From contig NZ_RBCI01000003.1 of the NCBI RefSeq assembly GCF_003628535.1, positions 124,001 to 188,000 on the forward strand: a stretch of DNA of 64,000 bases, given 5' to 3'. The notes beneath the pieces were generated by a model, which made no database searches, was not told where the DNA came from, and was given only the letters and a program-made list of their open reading frames with translations. Below are positions 33,538 through 58,049 of the stretch, piece by piece. The translations under genes and the position numbers were made by a program. This DNA is from Flavisolibacter nicotianae (lineage in GTDB: Bacteria; Bacteroidota; Bacteroidia; Chitinophagales; Chitinophagaceae). Numbering within the stretch: position 1 is the first letter of the stretch; each line of letters begins with the position of its first letter.

Positions 33538-35130
<1,593 letters not shown>

Positions 35131-42703: not shown

Positions 42704-43015
42704 TGTTTTGGTTGTTTGTATTTCCTTTATAAAAGGGTGAAAATAAGAATTTAAGGAAACTATTTTCCTGAGAATATGGAGTTTCCCGTTCTCTTCGTTC
42801 GCTTATTGCTATTCACTCCTCACTATAACCTGCAGCAGGCTATCAGGATCACACTTGTGTTTTGCCTAAGAAGGTATTTTGGTGGGAGAGTAGAACCTGA
42901 AAACGAAAACCTTTCACGTCATGTTCAGTGCGGGAATTTGCGGCTTTTTGGACAGAAAACTTCAGGTTTTCTATGGTGTTCTATAAAATGCCAACTTTGT
43001 TCGAAGCTTTTGAAA
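42704..43015. other. Divergent intergenic region between hsdM and the sigma gene
   Basis: These 312 bases should contain the two outward promoters. I found no exact TAnnTTTG match for either side. The frame of the sigma gene extends back to 42776 with no family similarity, so most of it is unlikely to be translated. Confidence 0.5.
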
Positions 43016-43567
43016 ATGACCACTTCCAAACAAGACTTCATTCAGTTCGTGAAAACCCACACAAAGGAGTTGTTTGCCTATACTTTTTCGAAGGTGCAGC
43101 AAAAAGAGGTGGCAGAAGACTTGGTACAGGAAATGTTTCTTTCAGCTTATCAATCGTATGATAGCTTCCAGGGGAAAAGCAGCGTAAAAACCTGGCTGTT
43201 TTCTATTCTCAAACGAAAGATTGCAGATCATTACCGTTTACGATACAAGAACAGTAATGAAGTTTCGTCTGGAATTATAGGAGATTTTTTCGATGAAAAT
43301 CATCGCTGGAGACCAGAACACAGGCCTAAAGAATGGCCCGACGAAAAGGACCTGCTTGATGATCCTGAGTTTTCAAAATCCCTGTCAGAATGCTTTAAAA
43401 ACCTACCCGAGAAATGGTCATCTGCTATTCGACTGAAATATCTTGAAGAACATGATGCAGATGGCATTTGCAATCAGCTTGAAATAAGCAAGTCAAATTT
43501 TTGGCAGATTATCCACAGGGCTAAATTATCGTTAAGAAATTGTTTGGAATTAAAATGGTTTAAATGA
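43016..43567 (+). CDS. ECF-type RNA polymerase sigma factor
   Basis: A 183-residue sigma-70 family protein of extracytoplasmic-function type. Region 2 is at about 10-75 (HTKELFAYTFSKVQQKEVAEDLVQEMFLSAYQSYDSFQGKSSVKTWLFSIL, split here only for reading) and region 4 at about 125-175, with an HTH ending SKSNFWQIIHRAKLSLRNCLE. There are 30-40 unusual residues between the domains. Together with the Cys/His-containing small protein two genes downstream it forms a plausible sigma / anti-sigma pair. Targets are unknown. ATG 43016 is chosen because similarity starts there. Confidence 0.9.
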   Translation: MTTSKQDFIQFVKTHTKELFAYTFSKVQQKEVAEDLVQEMFLSAYQSYDSFQGKSSVKTWLFSILKRKIADHYRLRYKNSNEVSSGIIGDFFDENHRWRPEHRPKEWPDEKDLLDDPEFSKSLSECFKNLPEKWSSAIRLKYLEEHDADGICNQLEISKSNFWQIIHRAKLSLRNCLELKWFK

Positions 43568-44345: not shown

Positions 44346-44419
44346 CAACTGTTGTCAGGAACCGGCCATTTTTACGACAATTGTTTAAATCAATTTTAAA
44401 ACAATCAAAATTTAGAGGA

Positions 44420-44864: not shown

Positions 44865-45200
44865 ATGAGTGAACATTATTACAATTCCAAGGACCTGGCA
44901 AAGTTTGGTAACATAGCAGACTTTCAGAAAGAACTGGGCGAAAAATTCTTCTCTTATTACAGCGAAGTGTTTAAAGACAGTGAGCTATCAGCAAGGGAGA
45001 AATCATTGATAGCATTGGCAGTAGCCCATGCAGTGCAATGTCCTTATTGCATTGACGCCTATAGCAGCGATGCCTTTGAAAAGGGATGGAGCGAAGGGCA
45101 GATGATGGAAGCTGTACATGTAGCGGCTGCCATACGAGGCGGTGCTTCTTTGGTGCATGGTGTGCAGATGATGAATAAGGTGAAAGAAATAGCAATGTAA
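44865..45200 (+). CDS. Arsenosugar-associated peroxidase-like (AhpD fold) protein
   Basis: A 111-residue AhpD / carboxymuconolactone-decarboxylase-fold protein. A redox pair C59-P-Y-C62 follows H55 (AHAVQCPYCIDAY), as in AhpD; the local context AVAHAVQCPYCIDAYSSDAF matches the peroxidase-like family that accompanies radical SAM enzyme ArsS. It may detoxify or reduce thiol-bound arsenic intermediates, but no activity is proven. The stop overlaps the arsS start by one base, so the pair is translationally coupled. It is the first gene of the long operon. Confidence 0.85.
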   Translation: MSEHYYNSKDLAKFGNIADFQKELGEKFFSYYSEVFKDSELSAREKSLIALAVAHAVQCPYCIDAYSSDAFEKGWSEGQMMEAVHVAAAIRGGASLVHGVQMMNKVKEIAM

Positions 45201-46249
45201 TGAGATCATTAAAAGCACAACATAGTTCCCTTGCCGATGCCCATGAGCAAGTGGCGATTATAGAACGTGGAAGAACGGGAGATTTTGCATTGGTTCCGTT
45301 CCAGCAAAACCTGGAAGGCTCCAATCTATATCCGTTGAAACCTACAGAAGTTCAAATCTTTCAGGTGAACATTGGCAAAATGTGCAATCAGGTATGTAAA
45401 CATTGCCATGTAGATGCAGGTCCTGACAGAAAAGAAATTATGACCAGAGAAACGATGCAGCGATGCCTTGATGTGTTGCAGGCGAACGATCAATTGCAGA
45501 CAGTTGATATTACCGGGGGAGCGCCGGAGATGAACCCCGACTTTCGCTGGTTTGTAGAAGAAGTTTCAAAACTAAAAAGGAATATTATTGTTCGATGCAA
45601 TCTCACGATAATTCTTGCCAACAAGAAGTATCATGACCTGCCACTTTTCTATAAAGAGCACAACGCTGAAGTTGTTTCTTCCCTTCCCTTTTATACACAA
45701 GATAGAACGGACAGACAGCGTGGCAATGGTGTGTTTGAGGACAGCATCAAAGCATTGCAAATGCTCAATGACGTCGGCTATGGAAAGGAAGGAACCGATT
45801 TGCAGTTAAATCTTGTGTACAATCCTGCTGGTGCATTTTTACCACCGTCGCAACAGGCGTTAGAAAAGGAATACAAGCAGGCCTTGAAGCAACGGTTTGG
45901 TATAGACTTCAATAATCTGTACGTCATCACCAATATGCCCATTAGCCGCTATCTGGATTATTTGCTCACCAGTGGAAACTATGAGGCCTACATGGAAAAA
46001 TTGGTGAACGCTTACAATCCTGTTGCAGCATTAAATGTCATGTGCCGCAACACTATTTCAGTTGGCTGGGATGGTTATTTATACGATTGTGATTTTAACC
46101 AGATGCTGGAATTGAAAGTACATTGCCAAGGTCAACACATTAGCGACTTCAATATCGCAGATTTAAACAACAGGGAAATTATTACAGGACAGCATTGTTA
46201 CGGTTGTACCGCAGGTTCGGGTTCAAGTTGTGGCGGTGCTGTGGCTTAA
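45200..46249 (+). CDS. arsS: Arsenosugar biosynthesis radical SAM protein ArsS
   Basis: A 349-residue radical SAM enzyme with the cluster motif C62-x3-C66-x2-C69 (CNQVCKHC), the GGE-like motif DITGGAPEMNP, and the diagnostic DUF3641 C-terminus with HCYGCTAGSGSSCGG. In known pathways ArsS joins a 5'-deoxyadenosyl group to dimethylarsenite, making the precursor of arsenosugars. Family members were formerly named for possible selenocysteine; here all such positions read as ordinary Cys codons and no in-frame TGA is present. The start overlaps the preceding stop by one base. Confidence 0.93.
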   Translation: MRSLKAQHSSLADAHEQVAIIERGRTGDFALVPFQQNLEGSNLYPLKPTEVQIFQVNIGKMCNQVCKHCHVDAGPDRKEIMTRETMQRCLDVLQANDQLQTVDITGGAPEMNPDFRWFVEEVSKLKRNIIVRCNLTIILANKKYHDLPLFYKEHNAEVVSSLPFYTQDRTDRQRGNGVFEDSIKALQMLNDVGYGKEGTDLQLNLVYNPAGAFLPPSQQALEKEYKQALKQRFGIDFNNLYVITNMPISRYLDYLLTSGNYEAYMEKLVNAYNPVAALNVMCRNTISVGWDGYLYDCDFNQMLELKVHCQGQHISDFNIADLNNREIITGQHCYGCTAGSGSSCGGAVA

Positions 46250-46259
46250 AACAAAGAAT

Positions 46260-47228
46260 ATGTCATATTTAGAAACAACGAAGAATATATACAAAGAGGC
46301 GGCAGAAAAGCCGCAGGTAGGCTTGTGTTGCACCACAACACCTGTATGGCAGTTACCAGGATTGTCTATTCCAAACAGGATGCTGCAAATGAATTATGGT
46401 TGCGGCAGTACCGTTCATCCCCGTGACCTTGTAAACAATCCCAACGTTTTGTATGTAGGTGTTGGCGGCGGAATGGAATTACTTCAATTTGCTTATTTCA
46501 GCAGGCAGCTTAATGGAGTTACAGGAGTAGATGTTGTGGATGAAATGTTAGAGGCTTGTAAAGAAAACTTTAGAGAAGCAGAAAAACAAAACCCGTGGTT
46601 TCGTTCTGGATTCGTCAACCTTATAAAAGGCAATGCACTGCATTTACCGGTTGAAGATAATAGCATTGATGTAGCTGCACAAAACTGTTTATTCAACATC
46701 TTCAAAAGGGATGATTTACACACGGCTTTAATGGAAATGTACAGGGTGCTAAAGCGACACGGAAGACTGGTTTTATCAGACCCGGTTTGTGAGCAGGAAA
46801 TCCCTGAGCAACTCAAAGAAGATGAACGTTTGCGGGCATTGTGTTTAAGCGGTTCGCTGCCATTGAGCGAGTATGTAAAAATGATTACGGATGTTGGCTT
46901 TGGTATGGTTGAAATAAGAGCCAAACGTCCTTACAGGATTTTAGCTCCTGTTAATTATGATACGGACGAATTGATTTACATAGAAAGTGTGGAGGTATGT
47001 GCGATAAAAGACCCCATGCCGCCAGACGGTCCTTGTATGTTCACAGGAAAGGCAGCCATTTACTACGGTCAGCTGGACTATTTTGATGACGAGAAAGGGC
47101 ATGTCTTGTTACGTAATCAGCCGTTAGCTGTTTGTGATAAAACAGCGCGAGCTTTAGCAGCTTTGAAGAGAGATGATATTTTTATTTCAAACAGTACCTA
47201 CTTCTATGACGGCGGTGGTTGTTGTTAA
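46260..47228 (+). CDS. arsM: Arsenosugar biosynthesis arsenite methyltransferase ArsM
   Basis: A 322-residue SAM-dependent methyltransferase. Motif I is VLYVGVGGGMELLQF, followed by GVDVVDEMLEACKENF and DVAAQNCLFNIF. Cysteines suited to As(III) binding include C23-C24, the C in YGCGS and the C-terminal GGGCC. ArsM of this type makes di- and trimethyl arsenicals from arsenite; the C-terminal double Cys is characteristic of the arsenosugar-linked form. ATG 46260 starts 11 bases after the arsS stop; a longer frame would overlap arsS. Confidence 0.92.
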   Translation: MSYLETTKNIYKEAAEKPQVGLCCTTTPVWQLPGLSIPNRMLQMNYGCGSTVHPRDLVNNPNVLYVGVGGGMELLQFAYFSRQLNGVTGVDVVDEMLEACKENFREAEKQNPWFRSGFVNLIKGNALHLPVEDNSIDVAAQNCLFNIFKRDDLHTALMEMYRVLKRHGRLVLSDPVCEQEIPEQLKEDERLRALCLSGSLPLSEYVKMITDVGFGMVEIRAKRPYRILAPVNYDTDELIYIESVEVCAIKDPMPPDGPCMFTGKAAIYYGQLDYFDDEKGHVLLRNQPLAVCDKTARALAALKRDDIFISNSTYFYDGGGCC

Positions 47229-47248
47229 ACCAACTTCTTGAAAACAAA

Positions 47249-48058
47249 ATGGAGCAATTCATCAAAGCAAAGGACTTTCTAAATTCCAAAGGCATTGCCA
47301 ATGCTGAAATAGGCATTGTATTGGGCACAGGGTTGCATCAGCTATTGAACCATGTGGATGTAAAGCAAACCATTCCTTATGCAGAAATACCCAACTTCCC
47401 TGTTTCAACCGTAGAATTTCACAAAGGCCATTTGATTTTTGGAACAATAGTAGGAAAAAACGTTCTGATCATGCAGGGCCGCTTCCATGCTTATGAAGGC
47501 TACACCATGCAGCAGATTGTGTTTCCGATAAGAGTAATGAAATTATTAGGCATCGAATACCTATTCTTATCCAATGCAGCGGGTGGCATTAACCTGAATT
47601 TTAAAAAAGGAGATTTGGTGTTGATTGATGACCACATCAACCTGCTTTCAGGCAATCCGCTAAGTGGAAAGAATTACGATGAATTGGGAAGTCGTTTTCC
47701 TGACATGAGCGAACCGTATGACCTGCAATTGAAAAGTCTGTTGCAGCGAAAAGCAAATGAATTAAGGATAGATTTAAAGAAAGGCGTCTACGCCGCGGTG
47801 CATGGTCCTAACCTTGAAACTAAAGCAGAATACCGTTACTTAAAGATCATTGGTGCGGATATGGTGGGCATGTCCACTGTACCGGAAGTAATTGCCGCTG
47901 TTCACATGCAGTTGCCCTGTGTTGGCGTTTCGGTTATCACGGATGAATGTGACCCTGAGAATCTAAAACCTGTAAACATTGCAGAAATTATAGAAATAGC
48001 AGGCAAGGCAGACAGCAAACTTTCGCGATTGTTCATTGAAGCAATAAAAGGATTATGA
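47249..48058 (+). CDS. Purine nucleoside phosphorylase (family 2)
   Basis: A 269-residue PNP of the trimeric family: GIVLGTGLHQL (phosphate loop), GRFHAYEGYTMQQIVFPIRVMKLLGI, LSNAAGGIN, VHGPNLETKAEYR (with base-binding Glu) and VGMSTVPEVIAA. The usual role is phosphorolysis of inosine or guanosine. In an arsenosugar operon it could instead remove adenine from 5'-deoxy-5'-dimethylarsinoyl-adenosine to release the arsenosugar core; that assignment follows from context. It starts 20 bases after arsM. Confidence 0.9.
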   Translation: MEQFIKAKDFLNSKGIANAEIGIVLGTGLHQLLNHVDVKQTIPYAEIPNFPVSTVEFHKGHLIFGTIVGKNVLIMQGRFHAYEGYTMQQIVFPIRVMKLLGIEYLFLSNAAGGINLNFKKGDLVLIDDHINLLSGNPLSGKNYDELGSRFPDMSEPYDLQLKSLLQRKANELRIDLKKGVYAAVHGPNLETKAEYRYLKIIGADMVGMSTVPEVIAAVHMQLPCVGVSVITDECDPENLKPVNIAEIIEIAGKADSKLSRLFIEAIKGL

Positions 48059-48654
48059 AGAAAGAAGCCTTGGTCATATTCACCAAAAACCCGGAAGCAG
48101 GTAAAGTTAAAACAAGGCTTGCCGCTACAATAGGCAATGATGCGGCACTTGCTGTTTACAAGGAATTGCTGTGGCGTACTATTGCGGCAACACAGTATTT
48201 GCCTGTCGACAAGTTTGTCTACTATTCAAATCATGCAGAACAGGAAGATGTATGGAATACCAATCAATACTATAAAGAGGTTCAGCAGGGAAGTGATTTG
48301 GGAGAGAGAATGAAGAACGCCTTTGCCTCCATTTTTAGTAAAGGGTATACTAAGGCTGTCATAATCGGAACGGATTGCCCAGCATTGAATGAAAATATTG
48401 TTCAGGGTGCATTTGGCAAACTGGCTGACGTTGATGTAGTCGTTGGTCCTGCCTACGACGGCGGTTATTATCTTCTTGGCATGAAACGTTGCTACCATCT
48501 TCTCTTTGAGAATATGAATTGGAGCACCGCAAATGTTTTACCTGAAACGATAAGCCGGTGCAAAAATGAAGGTTTGTTGTTTCAGCTCCTTCAAACATTG
48601 CATGATGTGGATGAGGAAAAGGATTTGGGCGCCTTAAATCTCGTAACGCCATGA
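48055..48654 (+). CDS. TIGR04282-type arsenosugar biosynthesis glycosyltransferase-like protein
   Basis: A 199-residue protein of the DUF2064 / CofC-like nucleotidyltransferase fold, TIGR04282 group. It shows FTKNPEAGKVKTRLA (nucleotide-binding loop), GTDCPALNENIV (metal-binding Asp), VVGPAYDGGYYLLG and ENMNWST. The family name says it accompanies arsenosugar biosynthesis; activation of a sugar (nucleotide transfer) is as likely as glycosyl transfer. It overlaps the PNP stop (ATGA) and is followed at once by the next gene. Confidence 0.88.
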   Translation: MKKEALVIFTKNPEAGKVKTRLAATIGNDAALAVYKELLWRTIAATQYLPVDKFVYYSNHAEQEDVWNTNQYYKEVQQGSDLGERMKNAFASIFSKGYTKAVIIGTDCPALNENIVQGAFGKLADVDVVVGPAYDGGYYLLGMKRCYHLLFENMNWSTANVLPETISRCKNEGLLFQLLQTLHDVDEEKDLGALNLVTP

Positions 48655-49037
48655 AAGCGCAGCTCCTATTTGTTTACAATGCAAACAGCGGTTTATTCAG
48701 TACAATGACCGACTTTGCTCATAAGATTTTATCGCCTTCAACGTATCAATGCCAATTGTGTGCATTGACCTATGGGAACTTTACCGTAAAGCGGGACTGG
48801 AAAACATTCATTGAACGTCTGACAATAGAAACGGCTTTTCTCCACAAAGACGAATTCGAAAAGCAGTACGGATTACAATCTGCTTTGCCGGCTGTTTTTC
48901 TTTCAACGGCTAGTACACTTCATGAATCAATCACCAAACAACAAATAGAGCGCTGTCATTCATTGGAAGAACTGAAAAACGTAGTAACACAAAAAATACA
49001 GCAGCATGTTCAGCATCATCATTCCAACATACAATGA
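48651..49037 (+). CDS. Conserved-looking protein of unknown function in the arsenosugar operon
   Basis: A 128-residue soluble protein. It begins QLLFVYNANSGLFSTMTDFAHKILSPSTYQCQLCALTYG and later has TIETAFLHKDEFEKQ, a helix and a His-rich tail (HVQHHHSNIQ). I do not recognise a domain. The start overlaps the previous stop by four bases (ATGA), and its 3' end overlaps the next gene by 32 bases, which points to a real, coupled gene. Possible Cys pair QLCAL is the only metal-suited site. Confidence 0.75.
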   Translation: MKAQLLFVYNANSGLFSTMTDFAHKILSPSTYQCQLCALTYGNFTVKRDWKTFIERLTIETAFLHKDEFEKQYGLQSALPAVFLSTASTLHESITKQQIERCHSLEELKNVVTQKIQQHVQHHHSNIQ

Positions 49038-49701
49038 AGCTGACCAGATTGCACAAACGATCAGCAAAACACATGCGGCTAATGGCAAGTATGAAGCTGA
49101 AATCATTGTAGTAGACGGATGCAGCACTGACGGGACTGAGGACATTGCCGAAACAACCGGTGTAACAGTAGTAAGGAGTGAGAGAAAAGGAAGAGCAGCA
49201 CAAATGAATAAAGGTGCTTCAGTTGCTAAATATGATATTCTTTACTTCCTACATGCCGACAGTACCCCGCCTCATGATTTTACAGGCCAGATATTACAAG
49301 CCTTACAAAGGGGTGCAAAGAGCGGTTGCTTTCGCCTTGCTTTTGACTATGACCATTGGTTTTTAAAAGCCAATACATGGTTCACCCGGTTTGATGTAAA
49401 TGCTGTTCGCTTTGGAGATCAGAGCTTGTTTGTTGCAAAAGAGGTGTTTGAGCAGGCAGGTGGATTTAGAGAAGACTTGCTATTGATGGAAGACCAGGAG
49501 ATCATACACCGGATAAAGAGACAAGGAAAGTTCAAAGTGTTGAATGATTATGTGATTACGTCTGCAAGAAAATACCTGGAGAATGGCGTGTACAGAATGC
49601 AGGGTATTTTTTACCGCATCTGGGCGCTTTATTATATGGGCTATTCGCAGCAGGAACTCCAAGAGGTTTACAGAAAACTGATCAAGAACCATAAGTTGTA
49701 G
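49006..49701 (+). CDS. TIGR04283-type arsenosugar biosynthesis glycosyltransferase
   Basis: A 231-residue GT-A fold glycosyltransferase: FSIIIPTYNEADQI, VVDGCSTDGT (nucleotide-binding), FLHADSTPP (metal-binding DxD-like), RFGDQSLFV and LLMEDQEIIHRI. The TIGR04283 family is the sugar-transfer member of arsenosugar clusters. It would attach a sugar to, or modify, the dimethylarsinoyl-ribose core; donor unknown. The start lies 32 bases inside the preceding gene. Confidence 0.9.
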   Translation: MFSIIIPTYNEADQIAQTISKTHAANGKYEAEIIVVDGCSTDGTEDIAETTGVTVVRSERKGRAAQMNKGASVAKYDILYFLHADSTPPHDFTGQILQALQRGAKSGCFRLAFDYDHWFLKANTWFTRFDVNAVRFGDQSLFVAKEVFEQAGGFREDLLLMEDQEIIHRIKRQGKFKVLNDYVITSARKYLENGVYRMQGIFYRIWALYYMGYSQQELQEVYRKLIKNHKL

Positions 49702-49703
49702 TT

Positions 49704-50402
49704 ATGATAAGCATTGTTATTCCTACATTCAACGAAGAAAACTTTATTGAAAAGACTTTGATCCGACTGAGTGCATTGAAGAAAGAGGCTGATTTCGAAA
49801 TTATCGTTACTGATGGAAAAAGCACTGACAGAACTACGACACTGGCTGGTACTTATGCAAAAGTTGTAACTGCGGATAAGGGGAAAGGAAGGCAATTGAA
49901 TGCCGGTGCAAATCATGCAACGGGTGACATATTGTTTTTTGTTCACGCAGACATGTATCTGCCTGGTGGAGCTTTAAATAAAATTGAACAAGTGATCAAT
50001 ATTGACGGGTATGACGGCGGGGGATTTGTTAATGAGTTCTCTTCCCATAACAGGAAAATAAAACGTCTTAGTAGCTTGCTCAGTACTTTATTGATAAACA
50101 GATCCAGCAGGAACAAAAATATCTTTTATGGAGACAATGGAATATTCGTAAGAAAGGATGTTTTTCACTCATTAGGAGGCTTTAAAGAAATCCCTATTAT
50201 GGAAGATTATGACTTTTCATTTCGATTGAAATCCTCATATAAGGTTTATGAAATTATTCAACCACCGCTTATTGTTGATCCAAGAAGGTTGCTGAAGGAC
50301 GGTTGTGCAAAAACAATCATGAAGTGGATACTTATTAAAAAGTTTTACCTGATGGGTGTACCACCCCATAAACTTACGGCGTGGTATAAGGATACCAGAT
50401 AA
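49704..50402 (+). CDS. Second TIGR04283-like glycosyltransferase
   Basis: A 232-residue GT-A glycosyltransferase with the same layout as its neighbour: ISIVIPTFNEENFI, VTDGKSTDRT, FVHADMYLP, FYGDNGIFV and IPIMEDYDFSF. The two are diverged paralogues (same order of motifs, modest identity). Its presence suggests that two sugars are added, or that the two enzymes work on different acceptors. It starts two bases after the stop of the first. Confidence 0.88.
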   Translation: MISIVIPTFNEENFIEKTLIRLSALKKEADFEIIVTDGKSTDRTTTLAGTYAKVVTADKGKGRQLNAGANHATGDILFFVHADMYLPGGALNKIEQVINIDGYDGGGFVNEFSSHNRKIKRLSSLLSTLLINRSSRNKNIFYGDNGIFVRKDVFHSLGGFKEIPIMEDYDFSFRLKSSYKVYEIIQPPLIVDPRRLLKDGCAKTIMKWILIKKFYLMGVPPHKLTAWYKDTR

Positions 50403-50408
50403 TTTAAA

Positions 50409-51845
50409 ATGGCAAAAAATTACTACGATATTATTGTTATTGGCGCGGGTTCAGGTGGTTTAAGCGTAGGCTTAACGATGAATAAGTTTGGCTTCAAAGT
50501 ATTGATGCTGGCCAAATCCGATAAGGATATTGGCGGTGATTGCCTTAATGACGGATGTGTTCCAAGTAAAGCATTTATACATGTATCAAGATTGTTACAC
50601 AATGCCAAACAGGCAACAGCATTTGGTTTGACAATTAATGGAAACCCAGATATTGGAAAAGGAATAGAATATGTTTATAGTAAACAGGAATTAATTCGCA
50701 AACATGAGAATGCAAAATGGCTGGAAGAGCAGGGAGTAACTGTTGAATTAGGTGAAGCGAAATTTTCAGGCAAAAATGAAGTTGAGATAAATGGTAAGAA
50801 ATACAGCGCGAAGAATATTGTGATAACCACCGGGTCAAGGCCGAGAAAATTAAATGTGCCGGGTGTCGAGTTGGTAAAGTATTATGATAATGAAAGCATT
50901 TTCTATGTTGATAGCTTACCTGACAATATTCTAGTAGTTGGTGGCGGCCCTATCGGAATTGAAATTGCCCAGGCATTGAGGCGTTTTGATAAAAAGGTAA
51001 CGGTGGTTCATCACGGCCAGAACATTTTAGAGCATGATGATAAAAGAGTTACCTCTATCCTCCTGAAACAATTACAACAGGAAGGAATAGAATTTATATT
51101 TTCTGCTACTCTCCAAAGTTTCACATCAGCACAAGAAGCGGTTGTAAAATTAAAGGATAACACAACAAAAAATTTGTTTTTTGAAGCTGTGTTTGTGGGT
51201 ATAGGTCGGGAATTGCTGTTAGAACCCCTTCAATTGCAGAATGCAGGAATTGAAGTCAGGGAAAATAAGATTGTTGTAGATGATCATTTGCGCACAACCA
51301 ACAAAAACATTTTTGTATGCGGTGATATCGCCGGGAACCTTGCCTTCTCCCATGCAGCCGAATTTCATGCCCGCATATTAGTTAACAATTTTCTTTCACC
51401 GATTAAAAAGAAGCTGAATAACGATCATTTTTCATGGGTAACCTTTACTGATCCTGAAATTGCAACCTTTGGTATAAACGAAAAGGAACTCAAGAAAAGA
51501 AAGATTAACTATGAAACCCTGGAAACAGATTTCAGTCACGATGATCGGGCGGTTGTCGATAATTATCAGTACGGGAAAGTCATTCTGTTTATCAGCAAAG
51601 GAAAGTTTTATAAAAAAGGAAGAGTATTGGGAGGCACCATGATTGCTCCACACGCAGGTGAGGTTATCCAGGAATTAATATTGGCTAACACGCAAAAGCT
51701 ATCTGTGGACGCTATTTTTAATAAGATTTATCCTTACCCGGTATCATCCAGGATAAATCAGGGGGTAATTACTCAGCTTAAGGAAAAGCAGTTAACAAAT
51801 AAGATTAAGAAGTTGTTACAATGGGCTTACAAGCTATTTGGATAA
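50409..51845 (+). CDS. FAD-dependent disulfide oxidoreductase, MerA/Lpd-like
   Basis: A 478-residue flavoprotein: FAD-binding IGAGSGGLSVG (11-21), redox disulfide C45-LNDG-C50, NADH-binding VVGGGPIGIEIAQ, and VCGDIAG near 310. The dimerisation domain lacks the C-terminal vicinal cysteines of true MerA (it ends AYKLFG), so it is not a mercury reductase in the strict sense. In this operon it may keep arsenic or its protein thiols reduced; related proteins are common in arsenosugar clusters. It starts six bases after the glycosyltransferase gene. Confidence 0.85.
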   Translation: MAKNYYDIIVIGAGSGGLSVGLTMNKFGFKVLMLAKSDKDIGGDCLNDGCVPSKAFIHVSRLLHNAKQATAFGLTINGNPDIGKGIEYVYSKQELIRKHENAKWLEEQGVTVELGEAKFSGKNEVEINGKKYSAKNIVITTGSRPRKLNVPGVELVKYYDNESIFYVDSLPDNILVVGGGPIGIEIAQALRRFDKKVTVVHHGQNILEHDDKRVTSILLKQLQQEGIEFIFSATLQSFTSAQEAVVKLKDNTTKNLFFEAVFVGIGRELLLEPLQLQNAGIEVRENKIVVDDHLRTTNKNIFVCGDIAGNLAFSHAAEFHARILVNNFLSPIKKKLNNDHFSWVTFTDPEIATFGINEKELKKRKINYETLETDFSHDDRAVVDNYQYGKVILFISKGKFYKKGRVLGGTMIAPHAGEVIQELILANTQKLSVDAIFNKIYPYPVSSRINQGVITQLKEKQLTNKIKKLLQWAYKLFG

Positions 51846-51926
51846 TAAAGTCTAATACAATAGCACAACGGGATATAAAGTCAAAGGAGTTAATTAGAAA
51901 TTCAAAAAATAAATACAAGCAAGCAA

Positions 51927-52250
51927 ATGGAATGGTGGGAAGCTTTTAAGGAGTGGTTTTTAAGTTTGGGTAACAAATACAATGTCAATCCATACATATT
52001 TGGCGGCATATATATAGGTGCTATTCCATTCTTTTTCCTGAGCCTTGGCTGGACTATTAAGAAAATCAGGAAAAAGAAGTCTTTTGTATTGCCTTTATTG
52101 CTAACATCCTTCTTTTTTATCTCCGCTTACCTGTATCTTCTTTTTGTTGGAAAAAATATTCCTGTGTGGGTTTATGTTTTTATCGGAATTATGATTGCTT
52201 ATGGCGTTTATTCAACATTTATCAAGATAAAATCAGCGTCGAAAAACTAA
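51927..52250 (+). CDS. Three-helix membrane protein of unknown function
   Basis: A 107-residue inner-membrane protein with hydrophobic helices at about 23-43, 53-72 and 79-97, separated by a KKIRKKK cytoplasmic loop. It has no recognised domain, and no conserved polar residues mark a catalytic site. It is preceded by an 81-base gap, the largest within the operon, so an internal promoter is possible. Confidence 0.7.
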   Translation: MEWWEAFKEWFLSLGNKYNVNPYIFGGIYIGAIPFFFLSLGWTIKKIRKKKSFVLPLLLTSFFFISAYLYLLFVGKNIPVWVYVFIGIMIAYGVYSTFIKIKSASKN

Positions 52251-52256
52251 TTAATT

Positions 52257-52937
52257 ATGAAGCCCGTTATACTATTTGATGTAAACGAGACGATGTTAAA
52301 CATGTCTCCTTTGAAGAAAAAAATAAACAGACTGTTAGGCAGCAGCAAAGGATTTCGTATTTGGTTCGGAATGTTATTGCAATATTCTCTGGTGGATAAT
52401 TGTACCGACAATTACCATGATTTTGCAAGTACTGCTTCTGCCACACTTGATATGGCAGCAAAAACTTTAATGGCAGACCTGGATGAAAAAGAAAAAAAGG
52501 CAGCGTTGCAATCCATCAAAGAACTACCTGCATATGATGATGTTCCGAAAGGACTGAAATTACTGAAAGAAAATGGCTTTCGATTAGCCACACTTACAAA
52601 TTCTTCCACAAACACATTGGTTGCACAACTGCAATATGCTGAACTCACCGAATATTTCGAAGCTACCTTAAGTATAGATACAATTAAGAAATATAAACCT
52701 TCTTTAGAAACTTATAAATGGGCAGCGGATCAACTGTCGGCAGATGTTTCGGAAGCCATACTAGTGGCGGCACATGGCTGGGACATTGCAGGTGCTCTGC
52801 AGGCAGGTTTACAGGCAGCATTCATAGAACGCAAAGGACAATCAGTATATCCGCTTGCTCCAAAACCAACATTTACAGGTAAAGACTTTGTGGATATCGC
52901 CAAACAAATTATCTCACGTTATAAACAGGAACGATGA
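52257..52937 (+). CDS. HAD-superfamily haloacid-dehalogenase-type hydrolase
   Basis: A 226-residue HAD protein. The nucleophile is D8 in LFDVNETML, the second motif is LTNSSTNT, the lysine lies in KKYKPSLETYKWA and the acid motif in VAAHGWDIAGALQAG. The DVNET sequence groups it with (S)-2-haloacid dehalogenases and related phosphatases. In an arsenosugar operon it might remove a phosphate left by phosphorolysis; that is inference. The stop overlaps the next start by four bases. Confidence 0.85.
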   Translation: MKPVILFDVNETMLNMSPLKKKINRLLGSSKGFRIWFGMLLQYSLVDNCTDNYHDFASTASATLDMAAKTLMADLDEKEKKAALQSIKELPAYDDVPKGLKLLKENGFRLATLTNSSTNTLVAQLQYAELTEYFEATLSIDTIKKYKPSLETYKWAADQLSADVSEAILVAAHGWDIAGALQAGLQAAFIERKGQSVYPLAPKPTFTGKDFVDIAKQIISRYKQER

Positions 52938-54007
52938 AGCCAAATGACGATAATGCAAAGCTGCCTTCAGACCAGCGACCCTTTAGAGTATTAATTATTT
53001 CCGGATCTGACAGAAGGCAATATAATTGCCCCGGTGTTGATAGTAAATCAAGAACTCTCATGCTGAAGATGGCCGAAATGCTTCCGCAGGATTGGGAAAT
53101 AGATTATGAAGACTTAGGGAATGTGTATGCAAGGGCAAGAATACAAAGTTGTAATGCATGTGTTTCAACTTCAATGGCTTTATGTGTATGGCCCTGCAAC
53201 TGTTATGAAAAGTATAGTAGCAAGGAGCCTGACCTGATGTGGAATTTAGATCTTTATTCACGGCTTGATATGGCTGATGCCTGGGCGATTATTGGTCCGG
53301 TAAACTGGTATAGCTGCAGCAGTAATTTAAAACTGATGTTTGACAGGTTAGTATGCATGAACGGGGGCAACCCTGATGAAAAGACCATTGACCACAAGAA
53401 CCCCGAAAAGGCAATGGCTCTGGAACATACCGGAGAATGGAAGGCATTAAGCTTAAATCATCTTGAAGGAAGAACCGCAGCTTTCTTTTGCTATGGTGAT
53501 GAAGGAGGAGATGAAATGGATGAAACAGGAAGACCCAAAGTATTACAACATAAAAATTATTTTAATCCTGATGACGAACCTTTTGAAAATGAAAGAAACG
53601 CTTATGCACCTTTGGTTTGGCAATGCCGCTATGGCGGTGTGGAAGTGCCCGACCAGCTTTGGAAGCACTGCACGACAGGAAAAGGAAAAAAGTATAGCGA
53701 CAACCAGGCAGAAGACATGATTAAAGAAGACGAATTTATTTCGACATTTAATACATGGGTAAAAAGCTTTGCAGGGTTTGTACAACAAAAAGGAAAGGTT
53801 CCACCCAACAAATACAGGGCTTTTGGTTATAAACCTCCAAAACACCTATGGGCAAGTGTAGAAGATGGTATCCGTTATTTCAGGATGATGGTTGGAAAAG
53901 CACCGAAAGGTTCATCACCGCAAATTCAGGATGATTTAGATTTGAATAATGATGCTACCTGGCATACAAAGAAAGGCGAAGGCGAAAAACTAAGAGGCGA
54001 TGATTAA
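52934..54007 (+). CDS. Flavodoxin-fold NAD(P)H-dependent oxidoreductase
   Basis: A 357-residue protein with an N-terminal flavodoxin-like / FMN-reductase fold: FRVLIISGSDRRQYNCPGVDSKSRTLMLKMAE, then CNACVSTSMALCVWPCNCYEKY and IIGPVNWYSCSSNLKLMFDRLVC. Five cysteines lie between 105 and 125-like positions of that block, an unusual density for the family. The C-terminal about 130 residues are a helical extension without recognised domain (ASVEDGIRYFRMM). It could supply reducing power for the operon's chemistry; substrate unknown. Confidence 0.8.
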   Translation: MKPNDDNAKLPSDQRPFRVLIISGSDRRQYNCPGVDSKSRTLMLKMAEMLPQDWEIDYEDLGNVYARARIQSCNACVSTSMALCVWPCNCYEKYSSKEPDLMWNLDLYSRLDMADAWAIIGPVNWYSCSSNLKLMFDRLVCMNGGNPDEKTIDHKNPEKAMALEHTGEWKALSLNHLEGRTAAFFCYGDEGGDEMDETGRPKVLQHKNYFNPDDEPFENERNAYAPLVWQCRYGGVEVPDQLWKHCTTGKGKKYSDNQAEDMIKEDEFISTFNTWVKSFAGFVQQKGKVPPNKYRAFGYKPPKHLWASVEDGIRYFRMMVGKAPKGSSPQIQDDLDLNNDATWHTKKGEGEKLRGDD

Positions 54008-54845
54008 AGCCATCTTTGATACATATGGCACACCCTTACTAATAGCGCTATTTGCTATACTCTTTTTGGTTGAAAGCAAATTTCAATTACGAAAAAGAGT
54101 TCATAACAGGTGGAAAAGGATGTTTATCAATTTAATTGTTTCCATTCCTGCATTTGCATTACTTCGGCTTCTTTTTATTCCGTTGATGGTTTGGCTGGCA
54201 GTCCAAAATCAAACATGGCAGTTCGGAGTAAACTACCTGTATGAAAGTTCATTTGCAGGGAAAGCAGTTGTTAGTTTTTTACTGCTCGATTACAGCATTT
54301 ATATCTGGCACATATTGCTGCATAAGCTGCCTATCCTTTGGCGCTTTCATTTAGTGCATCATACAGATTTAGATTTAGATGTTACTACAGCATTTCGTTT
54401 CCACTTTGGTGAAATGATTGGCTCCATCTTTTATCGTGGTGCTGCTATTTTGGTTATAGGTGCTTCACCATTGATGGTATTGATTTATGAAATTGTATTT
54501 GAAGCTGCGACCCAGTTTCATCATAGCAATATGAAGCTGCCATACAGATTTGAAAAAATACTGAACTACATTATTGTAACACCACGCATGCACGGCATTC
54601 ATCATTCTATGATTAAGAAAGAAACAGATAGTAATTACTCGGTTATCTTTTCTTTCTGGGATAGGATACATAAAACAGTGCGGCTGAATGTTCACCAAAA
54701 TGAAATAGTAACTGGTGTGCCTTCGTATGCAGACGAAAGGGAACTTACAATAGGCAAGTTATGGATCCTCCCATTCAAGTCAATCAGACAGTGGAAAGAC
54801 AGCGAAAGGCAGACTGACAAAAAATTCAACCAGCTAAAAAAGTAA
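54000..54845 (+). CDS. Sterol-desaturase / fatty-acid-hydroxylase superfamily membrane protein
   Basis: A 281-residue membrane protein with about four helices and the di-iron histidine boxes HILLHKLPILWRFHLVHHTD and HGIHHS (plus the HH within FEAATQFHHSN), the hallmark of the fatty acid hydroxylase superfamily. Such enzymes hydroxylate or desaturate acyl chains or sterols using O2. Its place in an arsenosugar operon, overlapping the previous gene by 8 bases, is unusual and hints at lipid modification. Confidence 0.88.
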   Translation: MIKAIFDTYGTPLLIALFAILFLVESKFQLRKRVHNRWKRMFINLIVSIPAFALLRLLFIPLMVWLAVQNQTWQFGVNYLYESSFAGKAVVSFLLLDYSIYIWHILLHKLPILWRFHLVHHTDLDLDVTTAFRFHFGEMIGSIFYRGAAILVIGASPLMVLIYEIVFEAATQFHHSNMKLPYRFEKILNYIIVTPRMHGIHHSMIKKETDSNYSVIFSFWDRIHKTVRLNVHQNEIVTGVPSYADERELTIGKLWILPFKSIRQWKDSERQTDKKFNQLKK

Positions 54846-54847
54846 AC

Positions 54848-55408
54848 ATGGCAAGAATTAGTGTTGTGCAATATGAACAGGCAGAGGGTGAGCTAAAAAG
54901 CATCTATGATGATCTGATGGAAGAGCGAGGGAAGTTATCTGAAGTGTTGAAGATACAGAGTTTACACCCTGAAACAATTAAAAGCCATACACAGCTTTAC
55001 CTGGACATTATGTTAACCCAATCGCCGCTAACAAGAGCGGAAAGAGAATTAATTGCTACAGTTGTTTCTGTAATTAACGGGTGCAATTATTGTCAGATAC
55101 ATCATTCGACTGCGTTAAATGCTTATTGGAAAGACCAGGAACGCATCAATAAATTGTTGAAAGACTATAAATTGGCAAGCTTATCAAGCAAAGAGATGGT
55201 TATGTGTGACTTTGCAGTACATCTAACGAAAAATCCATCCGAACATGAGAAAAACAACTACACTGAAACCCTTAAAGAGGTTGGATTGGACGATAGGTCA
55301 ATACTCGATCTTGTGTTGGTTATATCGTACTTCAACTTTGTTAATCGGACTGTACTGGCATTGGGTGTGCAATTGGAACAAGACAAGGGTGAAGGGTACA
55401 TATACTAA
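54848..55408 (+). CDS. AhpD-like / carboxymuconolactone-decarboxylase-family peroxidase-related protein
   Basis: A 186-residue AhpD-fold protein with the redox motif E67-x11-C79-N-Y-C82-x3-H86 (ELIATVVSVINGCNYCQIHH), matching the TIGR01926-type peroxidase-related group. It probably reduces peroxides or acts as a thiol-dependent oxidoreductase. It ends the operon, two bases after the hydroxylase stop, and is the second AhpD-fold protein of the unit besides that at 44865; the two are not close in sequence. Confidence 0.85.
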   Translation: MARISVVQYEQAEGELKSIYDDLMEERGKLSEVLKIQSLHPETIKSHTQLYLDIMLTQSPLTRAERELIATVVSVINGCNYCQIHHSTALNAYWKDQERINKLLKDYKLASLSSKEMVMCDFAVHLTKNPSEHEKNNYTETLKEVGLDDRSILDLVLVISYFNFVNRTVLALGVQLEQDKGEGYIY

Positions 55409-55602: not shown

Positions 55603-55606
55603 GTTA

Positions 55607-55618: not shown

Positions 55619-55993
55619 ATGAGCACAACTTGTATTAGACCGTATGCTGACAACATTCTAATAGGAGAATGTAAAAAGAAACTCCAAAAAGCTATATCCT
55701 CATTTGATAAGCTAAGCCAGGTATTAAGCCTTGCAGCTAATGATGTACGATTAAAAATACTCTATCTGCTGGACGAAGAAGGCGAACTATGTGTATGTGA
55801 TTTGGCGGACATCTTAGAAATGACCATTCCCGCCGTATCGCAGCATCTTAGAAAATTAAAGGATGGCAATGTTCTACAAACCCGTAGGGCTGGGCAGACC
55901 ATTTTTTATTCTTTGAAGGCAGAACATTTAGAAATAATCAAACCCTTGTTTGAACACATAGCAATTGCTAACCGAAAAAAGCAAAAAGCATGA
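55619..55993 (+). CDS. ArsR/SmtB-family metal-responsive repressor
   Basis: A 124-residue winged-helix regulator. The metal-binding motif ELCVCDLA (C58 and C60) is exactly the CadC/ArsR alpha-3 motif, and N-terminal C5 and C18 could complete a CadC-like site for soft metals. The recognition helix reads TIPAVSQHLRKLKDGNVLQTRRAGQTIFYSL. Although the gene heads a mercury operon, it is ArsR-like, not MerR-like, as is known for several non-proteobacterial mercury operons. It represses until metal binds. It overlaps the next start by four bases. Confidence 0.92.
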   Translation: MSTTCIRPYADNILIGECKKKLQKAISSFDKLSQVLSLAANDVRLKILYLLDEEGELCVCDLADILEMTIPAVSQHLRKLKDGNVLQTRRAGQTIFYSLKAEHLEIIKPLFEHIAIANRKKQKA

Positions 55994-56616
55994 AACAGGA
56001 AACAACATCTAAAGCAGTTACAGGCGTAGGCATATTTGCTGCAATAGCGGCATCACTTTGTTGTATCACACCTGTATTAGCCTTATTTGCTGGTTTTAGT
56101 AGTGCAGCTTCATCCTTATCATGGTTAGAGCCTGCACGTCCATTTTTAATTGGTTTGGCAATAGCAGCATTAGGCTTTGCCTGGTATCGTTCACTACGCT
56201 CAAAAACCGATACAACGTGCGGTACTGAAGGTAGTTGTCAGGTGGAAAAGAAAAACTTTCTTGCTTCAAAAACCTTCCTGATTGTTATCACAATAGCTGC
56301 TATTGCCTTAATAGCATTCCCATACTATGCTAAAATCTTTTATCCAAAGCCACAGAAGCAAAATATAGTAGTAGTTGAAAGCAATAACATTCAGTCAGCC
56401 TCATTCACAATTAAAGGCATGACTTGCCAGGGATGTGAAACAGAGGTAAATAATGAATTGCACAAGGTGCCCGGTGTAATTGATGCAGAAACCCATTACG
56501 CAAAATGTACCAGCGTTGTAAGGTATGATAAAACTAAGGCAACAGCAGATCAATTGAAAAACGCTATTGCAAAAACAGGTTATGAAGTGACGAATTATCA
56601 ACTTTTAAATCAATAA
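55990..56616 (+). CDS. merTP: MerT-MerP fusion mercury transport protein
   Basis: A 208-residue membrane protein. The MerT part (1-120) has three helices, with the vicinal C24-C25 of the first helix (ASLCCITPVL) and a second pair C77, C83 in the cytoplasmic loop. A heavy-metal-associated (HMA) domain follows, with G-M-T-C146-x2-C149 (MTCQGC), the MerP part. The fusion therefore captures Hg(II) outside and hands it through the membrane toward MerA. MerTP fusions are known; it overlaps the regulator by four bases. Confidence 0.93.
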   Translation: MKQETTSKAVTGVGIFAAIAASLCCITPVLALFAGFSSAASSLSWLEPARPFLIGLAIAALGFAWYRSLRSKTDTTCGTEGSCQVEKKNFLASKTFLIVITIAAIALIAFPYYAKIFYPKPQKQNIVVVESNNIQSASFTIKGMTCQGCETEVNNELHKVPGVIDAETHYAKCTSVVRYDKTKATADQLKNAIAKTGYEVTNYQLLNQ

Positions 56617-56618
56617 AT

Positions 56619-58049
56619 ATGGACTGTTGCAATGTTGATACAAAAAATAAGTTTGACCTTATTATTATAGGCGGCGGTTCAGCAGCATTTGCCGCAGCAA
56701 TTCATGCCGATAGCATGAAACTATCAACTTTAATAATTAATGATGGTTTGCCATTAGGCGGCACTTGTGTGAACGTAGGTTGTGTTCCATCTAAGTTTTT
56801 AATAAGAGCCGCAGAAAGCATTCATCGTGCTGCTGCTTTAAACTTTGATGGTGTTACAACAGCTAAGCCTACTATCAATTTTGCTAAAATCATTAAACAA
56901 AAAGAAGATTTGGTAAAAGACCTGCAACAGCACAAGTATATTGACCTGTTACCGGGTTTGCAGTATGTGAAAGTAATAGAAGGCAGAGCAAAGTTTGAAG
57001 AGAAAAATAAAGTTGAAGTAAATGGAGAAGTATACGAAGGTGCTAAAATAATTATTGCAACAGGCGCCACGACACATATTCCCGATATTGATGGCATCTA
57101 CGATGTGCCTTACTTAACAAGCAAAACACTTTTTGAGTTAGAACAACAACCACAATCACTTATCATTTTAGGTGCAGGTTATATTGCTCTTGAAATTGCA
57201 CAGGCTTATCAAAGAATGGGTACTAAGGTTACAATAATTCAACGATCACAGAGTGTTTTGTCAAAAGAAACAAAAGATATTACTAACGAATTAGAAAAAC
57301 TTCTAACTGCTGAAGGGATAACAATACATACAGGTTCAACAGTCAACAAAGTTTGGAAAGAAAGGAACAAAATCAAGGTGTTTTACACTAACGCACAGAA
57401 GGAGACTGATATACTTGAAGCAACTCATATTGTAGTGGCAACAGGCACAAAGGGAAATACAGCAGATTTAGATTTAGGAAAAATTGGGATAGAAATTACA
57501 GAAAAGGGGTTGATTAAAGTAGATGATTTATTAAAAACAAGCGCAGAAGATGTATTTGCTATTGGTGATGTTACCACCAATCCTCCTTTTGTTTATACAG
57601 CAGCGTACGAAGGAGGCAAAGCAGTTGTTAATGCTTTTAAATTACATCAAAAGCAAACGGACTTTTCTGTTCTGCCTTGGGTTGTATTTACTGATCCCCA
57701 GATAGCAGGAGTAGGAATAGATGAAAGAGAGGCAGAAGAAAAAGGCATTCCTCACCAGGTAACCACATTTTATTTAAAAGATATACCCAGAAGCATTGTA
57801 GCATTAGACACAAGGGGTTTTATCAAGCTGATCAGAAATCCTGAAAATGATTTGCTTTTAGGGGCAAGAATTGTAGCTCCCGAAGGTGGAGAACTTCTAA
57901 TGCAACTAAGCCTGATGATAAAATATAAAATACCATTGAAAGAAATTGTAGGTATGTTTCACCCTTACCTTACTTTGTCCGAAGGTGTTAAATTAGCTGT
58001 AATGTCCTTTACTACTGATGTGAAGAATATGAGTTGTTGTGCAAGCTAG
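56619..58049 (+). CDS. merA: Mercuric reductase
   Basis: A 476-residue FAD/NADPH disulfide oxidoreductase reducing Hg(II) to volatile Hg(0). It has FAD-binding IIGGGSAAFAAA, redox disulfide C50-VNVG-C55 (GTCVNVGCVPSK), NADPH-binding LGAGYIALEIAQ, and the C-terminal vicinal C473-C474 (MSCCAS) that bind mercury, which mark it as true MerA. The N-terminal HMA domain of many MerA proteins is absent; the MerTP HMA may take over that function. The start MDCC has two further cysteines. It begins two bases after merTP. Confidence 0.96.
   Translation: MDCCNVDTKNKFDLIIIGGGSAAFAAAIHADSMKLSTLIINDGLPLGGTCVNVGCVPSKFLIRAAESIHRAAALNFDGVTTAKPTINFAKIIKQKEDLVKDLQQHKYIDLLPGLQYVKVIEGRAKFEEKNKVEVNGEVYEGAKIIIATGATTHIPDIDGIYDVPYLTSKTLFELEQQPQSLIILGAGYIALEIAQAYQRMGTKVTIIQRSQSVLSKETKDITNELEKLLTAEGITIHTGSTVNKVWKERNKIKVFYTNAQKETDILEATHIVVATGTKGNTADLDLGKIGIEITEKGLIKVDDLLKTSAEDVFAIGDVTTNPPFVYTAAYEGGKAVVNAFKLHQKQTDFSVLPWVVFTDPQIAGVGIDEREAEEKGIPHQVTTFYLKDIPRSIVALDTRGFIKLIRNPENDLLLGARIVAPEGGELLMQLSLMIKYKIPLKEIVGMFHPYLTLSEGVKLAVMSFTTDVKNMSCCAS

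What the first reader, a model, noticed from the sequence alone, without database searches (positions are those of the whole stretch)
44865..55408. Long, tightly coupled 14-gene operon built around arsenosugar biosynthesis
ArsS, ArsM, a peroxidase-like AhpD protein, TIGR04282 and two TIGR04283-type transferases are the known markers of arsenosugar clusters. Here they are joined, with mostly 1-8 base overlaps or short gaps and all on one strand, by a PNP, an unknown 128-residue protein, a MerA-like flavoprotein, a small membrane protein, a HAD hydrolase, a flavodoxin-fold protein, a fatty-acid-hydroxylase-like protein and a second AhpD protein. The chemistry orders itself: methylate arsenite, add deoxyadenosyl, remove adenine, add or modify sugar, then finish. 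This extended set, on a presumed mobile island, is the best candidate for an incompletely described pathway in this window.
Basis: partly seen in the sequence, partly recalled or inferred. Interest (0 to 1): 0.85.

Follow-up and report, generated by a model that had tools for sequence, protein, structure and literature searches.

The report
Extended arsenosugar operon on an island
A 14-gene bacterial operon combines the known genes that turn arsenic into an arsenic-containing sugar with extra redox and lipid-type enzymes, several of which travel with the same core genes in other species, which gives testable candidates for the unknown later steps of this pathway.

Summary
Fourteen same-strand genes (44865-55408) sit on a low-GC island in a Chitinophagaceae genome. 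Five NCBIfam arsenosugar families pass their cut-offs: TIGR04169, ArsS, ArsM, TIGR04282 and TIGR04283 (two copies). The exact 14-gene set was found in none of 122 other ArsS loci, but much of the extension recurs. A cysteine-rich flavodoxin-like protein ("fmn", 73-84% identical) is within 10 kb of ArsS in 8 of its 12 copies found, usually as TIGR04283-fmn-hydroxylase. A MerA-like flavoprotein with a small membrane protein occupies the same slot in a Pedobacter and faces an arsM-containing cluster in another Chitinophagaceae. The 128-residue unknown looks like a thioredoxin and is fused to TIGR04282 in one genome. The PNP is a second copy, distinct from the housekeeping PNP. The HAD dehalogenase was in no other locus examined; the second AhpD only as a 24% match.

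Best reading: arsenosugar biosynthesis carried past ArsS (phosphorolysis, nucleotidyl activation, glycosyl transfer, lipid hydroxylation) with its own thiol/flavin redox supply. Steps after ArsS are inferred. Seven of eight ArsS-linked fmn loci lack the arsenosugar ArsM, and four Sphingobacteriaceae genomes with ArsS showed no ArsM-like match above 36 bits; unexplained.

The parts
33544..35130 (-). large serine recombinase at the tRNA-Ala (33538-33612) edge of the island
   Evidence: PF00239, PF07508, PF13408; tRNA; GC step
42776..43567 (+). ECF-type sigma factor, upstream unit; relatives with an anti-sigma gene lie near arsenosugar genes in L047 and L171
43634..44095 (+). DUF6789 membrane protein; 58% relative beside ahpD1-arsS in L220
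44097..44345 (+). anti-sigma factor
   Evidence: NF052368
44802..44839 (+). strong hairpin plus U-run (terminator or attenuator) before the operon
44865..45200 (+). AhpD1, arsenosugar-associated peroxidase-like protein, CPYC
   Evidence: TIGR04169; within 5 kb of ArsS in 99 of 123 loci
45200..46249 (+). ArsS radical SAM (CNQVCKHC)
   Evidence: TIGR04167; motif
46260..47228 (+). ArsM, arsenosugar type
   Evidence: NF038099
47249..48058 (+). second purine nucleoside phosphorylase (TDECDP loop)
48055..48654 (+). TIGR04282 CofC-like nucleotidyltransferase fold (GKVKTRL)
   Evidence: PDB 3cgx match
48651..49037 (+). 128-aa thioredoxin-like protein, invariant CxxC and P80
   Evidence: fused to TIGR04282 in L150
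49006..49701 (+). TIGR04283 GT2 family transferase, copy a
49704..50402 (+). TIGR04283 GT2 family transferase, copy b (33% identical to a)
50409..51845 (+). MerA/Lpd-like FAD disulfide oxidoreductase (CLNDGC), not MerA
   Evidence: relatives L012, L170, L221, L172
51927..52250 (+). small membrane protein, next to the MerA-like gene
   Evidence: 73-75% relatives G419, G440, G776; 71% in L221
52257..52937 (+). HAD, haloacid dehalogenase type II (DVNET)
   Evidence: TIGR01428; PDB 7arp
52934..54007 (+). cysteine-rich flavodoxin-like FMN reductase family protein ('fmn')
   Evidence: PF03358; 12 copies in 11 genomes
54000..54845 (+). membrane di-iron hydroxylase family (PF04116, His boxes), 'fah'
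54848..55408 (+). AhpD2, TIGR01926 peroxidase-related, CNYC
55619..58049 (+). ArsR/SmtB regulator, MerTP and true MerA: a following, probably separate mercury unit

Best explanation
This is an arsenosugar biosynthesis operon whose extra genes carry the pathway beyond ArsS and supply its reductant. (1) ArsM makes dimethylarsinous acid and (2) ArsS adds the 5'-deoxyadenosyl group; both are reported for cyanobacterial relatives, not shown here. (3) The second PNP removes adenine with phosphate, giving 5-dimethylarsinoyl-ribose-1-phosphate (inferred). (4) TIGR04282, a CofC-like nucleotidyltransferase, activates that sugar phosphate to an NDP-sugar (inferred). (5) TIGR04283 transferases move it to a glycerol or glycerolipid acceptor at the membrane (inferred). 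(6) The PF04116 hydroxylase modifies the lipid part (inferred, weakest). Thiol and flavin proteins (AhpD1, the thioredoxin-like 128-aa protein, the MerA/Lpd-like flavoprotein with its membrane partner, and fmn) keep arsenic trivalent and thiols reduced; MerA-like plus small membrane protein and fmn take the same slot between TIGR04283 and the hydroxylase in different genomes and may be alternatives. The window joins both versions, and arsM, in one operon.
For: Cut-off family hits for the core. fmn copies: ArsS within 10 kb in 8 of 12, TIGR04283 in the locus in 10 of 12, hydroxylase in 9 of 12; G560 and G561, whose fmn copies are unlinked to ArsS, hold an ArsS cluster elsewhere. Close hydroxylase relatives in 11 other ArsS loci, all within 5 kb of ArsS and none further out in an outer band of nearly equal total length; six of these 11 were fetched because they carry fmn, the other five (L008, L012, L036, L210, L221) come from the 116 loci not fetched for it. 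MerA-like-small membrane protein-hydroxylase directly after TIGR04283 in L012, and the pair facing an ArsM-bearing cluster in L221. TIGR04282 fused to the thioredoxin-like protein in one ORF in L150. PNP: six of seven own-family genomes examined carry two PNPs, the ArsS type and another at 49-50% identity, and the two types mostly separate in the tree. A PF01553-type acyltransferase lies within 5 kb of ArsS in 9 of 123 loci (one member checked), in keeping with a lipid product.
Against: No product, activity or transcript is known. Only 1 of the 116 ArsS loci not fetched for it has fmn and 5 have the close hydroxylase, so these steps are optional. A looser search of the 80 scan loci also finds distant PF04116-like genes (37-59 bits), four within 5 kb and three beyond, so the bare family is not specific. 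fmn is not confined to ArsS clusters: the two G560 copies have no intact cluster gene beside them (a broken small-membrane-protein fragment, about 32%, lies next to one), and a proteobacterial relative with the same cysteine pattern lies in a non-arsenic context. The MerA-like gene also sits in a mer operon (L172). HAD, TIGR04283b and AhpD2 have no supporting neighbourhood. The Asp at the PNP base-binding loop is shared by housekeeping PNPs, so it does not show adenine specificity, and one small ArsS-type PNP group falls on the housekeeping side of the tree. The fmn model is poor (mean pLDDT 49.9). Seven of eight ArsS-linked fmn genomes have no arsenosugar ArsM over cut-off.
Confidence: 0.55

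Rival explanations
1. Core arsenosugar operon plus hitchhikers: genes from the MerA-like one onward are island cargo (metal and redox stress genes) inserted behind the core and not part of the pathway.
For: The island also carries ArsR-MerTP-MerA, a heavy-metal P-type ATPase and an RND efflux set. The MerA-like gene occurs in a mer operon in L172. HAD was found in no other locus examined, AhpD2 only at 24% in L119, TIGR04283b only as a partial 31% match in L172.
Against: fmn, hydroxylase, MerA-like and the small membrane protein recur beside ArsS or TIGR04283 in two families with conserved order, and overlaps or short gaps run through the extension apart from one 81-nt gap.
Confidence: 0.25
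2. Arsenic detoxification without a defined end product: ArsM and ArsS make organoarsenicals for export, and the flavin and AhpD proteins are oxidative-stress protection.
For: Metal-resistance setting of the island; AhpD1 is the most constant neighbour (99 of 123).
Against: Activated-sugar enzymes (TIGR04282, TIGR04283) and the PNP recur (64, 34 and 47 of 123), which plain resistance does not need; none of the 14 proteins has an above-threshold exporter family hit.
Confidence: 0.15
3. In fmn-type clusters ArsS acts on something other than ArsM product made in the cell, such as scavenged methylarsenicals that the flavin protein first reduces; the window is a recent fusion of this type with an ArsM type.
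For: Arsenosugar ArsM over cut-off in 1 of 8 genomes with ArsS-linked fmn against 12 of 21 ArsS-positive fmn-negative genomes that I chose (Fisher p 0.044). Sphingobacteriaceae G418, G419, G496, G517 have ArsS but no ArsM-like match above 36 bits; the G418 and G419 matches look like UbiE by eye.
Against: With the three genomes whose fmn is unlinked (G835 and G561 have ArsM, G560 not over cut-off) the contrast is 3 of 11 against 12 of 21, p 0.15. Small, related, hand-picked sample. ArsM is also below cut-off in 9 of 21 fmn-negative genomes. G419 lacks ArsM but has the MerA-like pair, not a linked fmn. G006 has canonical-looking ArsM genes elsewhere; similar-scoring matches in G790, G766 and G701 were not inspected. 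Completeness of the Sphingobacteriaceae genomes is not told.
Confidence: 0.15

Closest known systems
Arsenosugar biosynthesis cluster (NCBIfam set TIGR04167/ArsS, NF038099/ArsM, TIGR04169, TIGR04282, TIGR04283); Synechocystis ArsM-ArsS pathway
   Same: All five families present above cut-off in one operon; the first two steps presumably the same
   Different: The window adds a PNP, a thioredoxin-like protein, MerA-like plus membrane protein, HAD, fmn, hydroxylase, a second TIGR04283 and a second AhpD; I saw no description of these as a set in the papers found
Arsinothricin cluster (arsQML, PMC8552651, passages read)
   Same: A radical SAM enzyme and an ArsM make C-As bonds
   Different: There ArsL transfers 3-amino-3-carboxypropyl; here the radical SAM is ArsS (456.8 bits). 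The window ArsM is far below the arsinothricin ArsM cut-off (101.5 against 500)
ArsH (organoarsenical-oxidising FMN protein; function recalled)
   Same: fmn is of the same broad flavodoxin-like FMN reductase family; ArsH 2q62 is among the weak fold matches (E 0.28)
   Different: fmn matches no NCBIfam model at E 0.01, has a long extra C-terminal part and nine cysteines invariant in 12 homologues
Lpd-AhpD thiol peroxidase relay (recalled)
   Same: An Lpd/MerA-type flavoprotein and CxxC AhpD proteins in one operon
   Different: No AhpC or SucB partner in the operon; substrate unknown

Membership tests
Arsenosugar biosynthesis cluster | ArsS TIGR04167 above cut-off with CxxxCxxC | tested here: met
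   456.8/300 bits; CNQVCKHC at 62
Arsenosugar biosynthesis cluster | ArsM of the arsenosugar type in the same operon | tested here: met
   NF038099 556.5/400 bits
Arsenosugar biosynthesis cluster | TIGR04169, TIGR04282 and TIGR04283 partners | tested here: met
Arsenosugar biosynthesis cluster | production of an arsenosugar | not testable with these tools
   needs LC-ICP-MS on the host or an expression strain
Mercuric reductase MerA (for 50409-51845) | TIGR02053 above cut-off and C-terminal cysteine pair | tested here: not met
   283.1 against 454.45; ends KLFG, whereas the MerA at 56619-58049 scores 493 and ends SCCAS
ArsH (for 52934-54007) | match to any NCBIfam family model (an ArsH model is recalled as one of them) | tested here: not met
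   0 families at E 0.01
Thioredoxin fold (for 48651-49037) | CxxC, proline before strand 3, thioredoxin-like topology | tested here: inconclusive
   C34, C37, P80 invariant in 4 of 4; model pLDDT 73; most of the 50 best fold hits shown are thioredoxin-like but the best E is only 0.009
Haloacid dehalogenase type II (for 52257-52937) | TIGR01428 above cut-off | tested here: met
   155.9/125.4; PDB 7arp E 2.5e-56
Integrative genomic island | site-specific recombinase at an edge and a composition step | tested here: met
   serine recombinase at tRNA-Ala; GC 39-44% from about 36 to 76 kb against 47-54% outside (4-kb blocks)
Integrative genomic island | direct repeats (att) at both ends | tested here: inconclusive
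   left edge 33301-33800 shares 14-mers downstream only at 41156, not near the far end; no 16-mer of the tRNA elsewhere in the stretches searched; a short core would be missed

The most novel reading that the evidence does not exclude
The operon encodes a complete route from arsenite to a membrane arsenosugar lipid: a second, pathway-specific PNP yields arsenoribose-1-phosphate, TIGR04282 makes an NDP-arsenoribose, TIGR04283 moves it to a glycerolipid and a di-iron hydroxylase finishes it, with two interchangeable flavin modules. In Sphingobacteriaceae the same late module runs without ArsM, on scavenged methylarsenic or another substrate.
Probability: 0.22. Interest if true: 0.8.

Novelty: new variant of a known kind. 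Interest (0 to 1): 0.6.

Why it matters
As far as the papers I could see go, arsenosugar synthesis is described only to ArsM and ArsS; how adenine is lost and the sugar is completed or attached to lipid is open. One operon that holds a phosphorylase, a nucleotidyltransferase, glycosyltransferases and a membrane hydroxylase, with several linkages repeated in other genomes, turns that open question into defined enzyme assays. The recurrence of ArsS clusters without a detected ArsM raises the question of where their arsenic substrate comes from.

Tried and rejected
Considered and rejected: (a) PNP adenine specificity from the Asp at the N243-equivalent position (recalled from human PNP mutants): housekeeping PNPs carry it too. 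(b) The cysteine pattern of fmn as an arsenic-specific trait: a Sinorhizobium relative outside any arsenic context has it. (c) fmn anti-correlated with ArsM as a rule: p 0.044 for linked fmn only, 0.15 with all 11 fmn genomes; kept only as a lead. (d) Different origins for the front and back of the operon: gene trees of 12-16 rows have too few supported branches. (e) A Bacteroidota-type promoter before the operon: none matched in the short stretches scanned, and only 25 nt lie between the U-run and the first ATG. (f) att repeats: none at both ends. (g) Plasmid carriage of fmn: only distant partial matches in 101 plasmid records, none covering 80%. (h) More distant relatives of the small membrane protein (30-51%): of 27 such matches, 12 loci were fetched (L173-L184) and no other operon gene was found in them.

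Literature: seven searches. Passages only were read in PMC12159101, PMC8552651, PMC8801600, PMC13171826 and PMC12608789. Xue et al. 2019 (PMC6467767) is not held; it and Cheng et al. 2021 were seen only as citations.

Full report
What is there. The window holds 14 consecutive + strand ORFs from 44865 to 55408, with six overlapping junctions and gaps of 2-20 nt elsewhere apart from one of 81 nt (ArsM taken from ATG 46260). The five NCBIfam arsenosugar families pass their curated cut-offs, TIGR04283 twice. The rest are a PNP, a 128-aa protein and a 107-aa membrane protein without a significant family, a MerA/Lpd-like flavoprotein, a type II haloacid dehalogenase, a PF03358 protein ("fmn"), a PF04116 hydroxylase ("fah") and a TIGR01926 AhpD.

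Setting. GC falls to 39-44% between about 36 and 76 kb in window numbering, against 47-54% in 4-kb blocks outside; the operon is 40.1% and window 1-33500 is 50.9%. The left edge has a large serine recombinase at tRNA-Ala, then a type I restriction set, a sigma/anti-sigma unit, the operon, ArsR-MerTP-MerA, a P-type ATPase and RND efflux genes. No att repeat was found. The host family is Chitinophagaceae, inferred because two contigs of genomes in the host's family have exactly the lengths of named records, Chitinophagaceae bacterium IBVUCB2 (2260640 nt) and a Thermoflavifilum MAG (261221 nt). A 13-bp hairpin with a U-run ends 25 nt before the first ATG: either it ends the sigma unit or the operon is read through it. 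I found no promoter.

Does the set recur? Genes within 5 kb of ArsS (in brackets, loci with one further out): AhpD1 99 (0), TIGR04282 64 (5), ArsM 47 (5), PNP 47 (0), TIGR04283 34 (12), DUF547 31 (5), a rhodanese 20 (0), a glyoxalase-family protein 13 (4), fah 11 (1, the window), a PHO4 transporter 9 (1), an acyltransferase 9 (1), an SDR 8 (3), fmn 7 (1, the window) (Pfam names of the genes that the window lacks rest on one member each, the glyoxalase on a gene of L220). Close fah relatives occur in 11 other loci, all within 5 kb, although the outer band is nearly as long (1.03 against 1.14 Mb). Leaving out the six fmn-chosen loci, fah is in 5 of 116 and fmn in 1 of 116. A looser search of the 80 scan loci adds seven distant PF04116-like genes, four within 5 kb and three beyond.

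fmn. Full-length relatives were found in 11 genomes (12 copies), own included: 2 of 58 relatives (own and G006; a third, G017, holds only a 23-residue remnant), 1 of 396 in the order sample (own), 1 of 3 in the genus of G418, 5 of 251 in the Sphingobacteriaceae sample and 5 of 294 in the own-family sample, own included. These samples overlap. ArsS itself is in 144 of 396 (142 over cut-off). Of the 12 copies, 8 have ArsS within 10 kb, 10 have TIGR04283 in the locus and 9 have fah. The usual order is ahpD1-arsS-(pnp)-TIGR04282-(128-aa)-TIGR04283-fmn-fah; in G006 fah is inverted, and no ahpD1 was seen in L148 and L150 (in L150 the contig ends just past arsS). The two copies in G560 have no intact cluster gene beside them; one lies 1.2 kb from its contig start and next to a broken fragment of the small membrane protein. 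G560 and G561 have an ArsS cluster elsewhere; ArsS was not looked for genome-wide in G835. The protein is 73-84% identical to the window's across two families, with nine invariant cysteines including CxxC...CxxxCxC. A Sinorhizobium relative shares about half the protein and this cysteine pattern without arsenic neighbours, so the fold is older than its use here. Its model is poor; weak fold matches (best E 0.044) are mostly FMN reductases and NQO1-type proteins, with ArsH among them.

MerA-like and small membrane protein. In Pedobacter changchengzhani (L012) the order is TIGR04283-MerA-like-membrane protein-fah. L170 (G440) shows MerA-like-membrane protein-fah at a contig end, and L171 (G776) has the membrane protein beside pnp-TIGR04282-TIGR04283 and a sigma/anti-sigma pair. 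In L221 (G397) ahpD1-arsS-arsM-pnp-TIGR04282-TIGR04283-fah faces membrane protein-MerA-like. L172 has the MerA-like gene in a mer operon with a broken membrane-protein gene. So this pair and fmn take the same slot in different genomes, and the window holds both.

The 128-aa protein. Relatives lie beside TIGR04283 in L149 (51%) and near ArsS in L047 (38%), broken in L119; in L150 it is fused to TIGR04282 in one 327-aa ORF. C34, C37 and P80 are invariant in four sequences. The model (pLDDT 73) resembles thioredoxins, with weak E-values. I read it as thioredoxin-like; this is not proven.

PNP. Own-family genomes G000, G006, G766, G701, G790 and G835 have an ArsS-type PNP and a second PNP at 49-50% identity, G776 only the first; G517, G496, G418, G419, G440, G560 and G561 have one PNP. 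In G701, G790 and G835 the ArsS-type PNP is not in the fmn locus. The tree separates most ArsS-linked PNPs, largely TDECDP/TDDCDP though several Flavobacteriaceae differ, from both housekeeping groups, but a three-row TDECDP group (L094, L114, L045) falls on the housekeeping side of the midpoint root.

ArsM. The arsenosugar ArsM is over cut-off in only 1 of 8 genomes with ArsS-linked fmn (the window's own), and in 12 of 21 ArsS-positive genomes without fmn that I chose (p 0.044). With the three unlinked fmn genomes (G835 and G561 over cut-off, G560 not) it is 3 of 11, p 0.15. Four Sphingobacteriaceae genomes with ArsS (G418, G419, G496, G517) have no ArsM-like match above 36 bits; two were looked at and resemble UbiE by eye. 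G006 has canonical-looking ArsM genes elsewhere, one beside a gene that looks like an arsenite efflux gene; both names are by eye, not from a family scan. The sample is small and related.

Mechanism. Known or near-known: ArsM methylation and ArsS adenosylation (as summarised in passages of PMC12159101 and PMC8552651). Inferred from families: phosphorolysis by PNP; nucleotidyl activation by TIGR04282, whose GKVKTRL motif and match to 3cgx fit a nucleotidyltransferase fold; GT2 transfer by TIGR04283; oxidation of a membrane substrate by the PF04116 protein, which has HxxxH/HxxHH boxes. The CxxC proteins and flavoproteins fit a relay that keeps arsenic trivalent. HAD and the second copies of TIGR04283 and AhpD have no supported role.

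Verdict. The extended operon is real and much of the extension recurs, but as optional modules on a known core, so it is a new variant of a known kind. In seven literature searches of the open library I found no description of the extension; most subscription papers are not held, so this is weak evidence of absence.

Noticed in passing
L220:7854-8975, L205:7894-9015, L219:4767-5747: PHO4-type phosphate transporter genes lie near arsS in 9 of 123 loci (within 5 kb) and, by sequence resemblance, beside arsM in L205; perhaps an arsenate uptake route. PF01384 was checked on the L219 member only.
   Followed up: partly
L209:6093-7256: A PF01553 acyltransferase family lies within 5 kb of ArsS in 9 of 123 loci, hinting at a lipid product.
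   Followed up: partly
window 63254-64000, continuing in L120:254-3486: A heavy-metal RND pump gene is split into two ORFs that overlap by 4 nt (AcrB-family profile 2-422, then 421-1019), either a real split or a frameshift; left as is.
   Followed up: no
window 55580-55603: A palindromic stretch lies just before arsR, a likely ArsR operator (seen by eye, placed).
   Followed up: no
L119:2805-2873: In G017 only the last 23 residues of fmn are found, between TIGR04283 and an AhpD-like gene, on a 3.7-kb contig: a decayed or misassembled copy.
   Followed up: no
L021:8755-9531, L052:10995-11600: DUF547 (31 of 123 loci) and a rhodanese-domain protein (20 of 123) are frequent ArsS neighbours; the families found held no window protein between 38 and 60 kb.
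   Followed up: partly
window 42776-44776: Sigma factor, DUF6789, anti-sigma and DUF6799 genes upstream; sigma/anti-sigma pairs also occur near arsenosugar genes in L047 and L171 and about 6 kb away in L053.
   Followed up: partly
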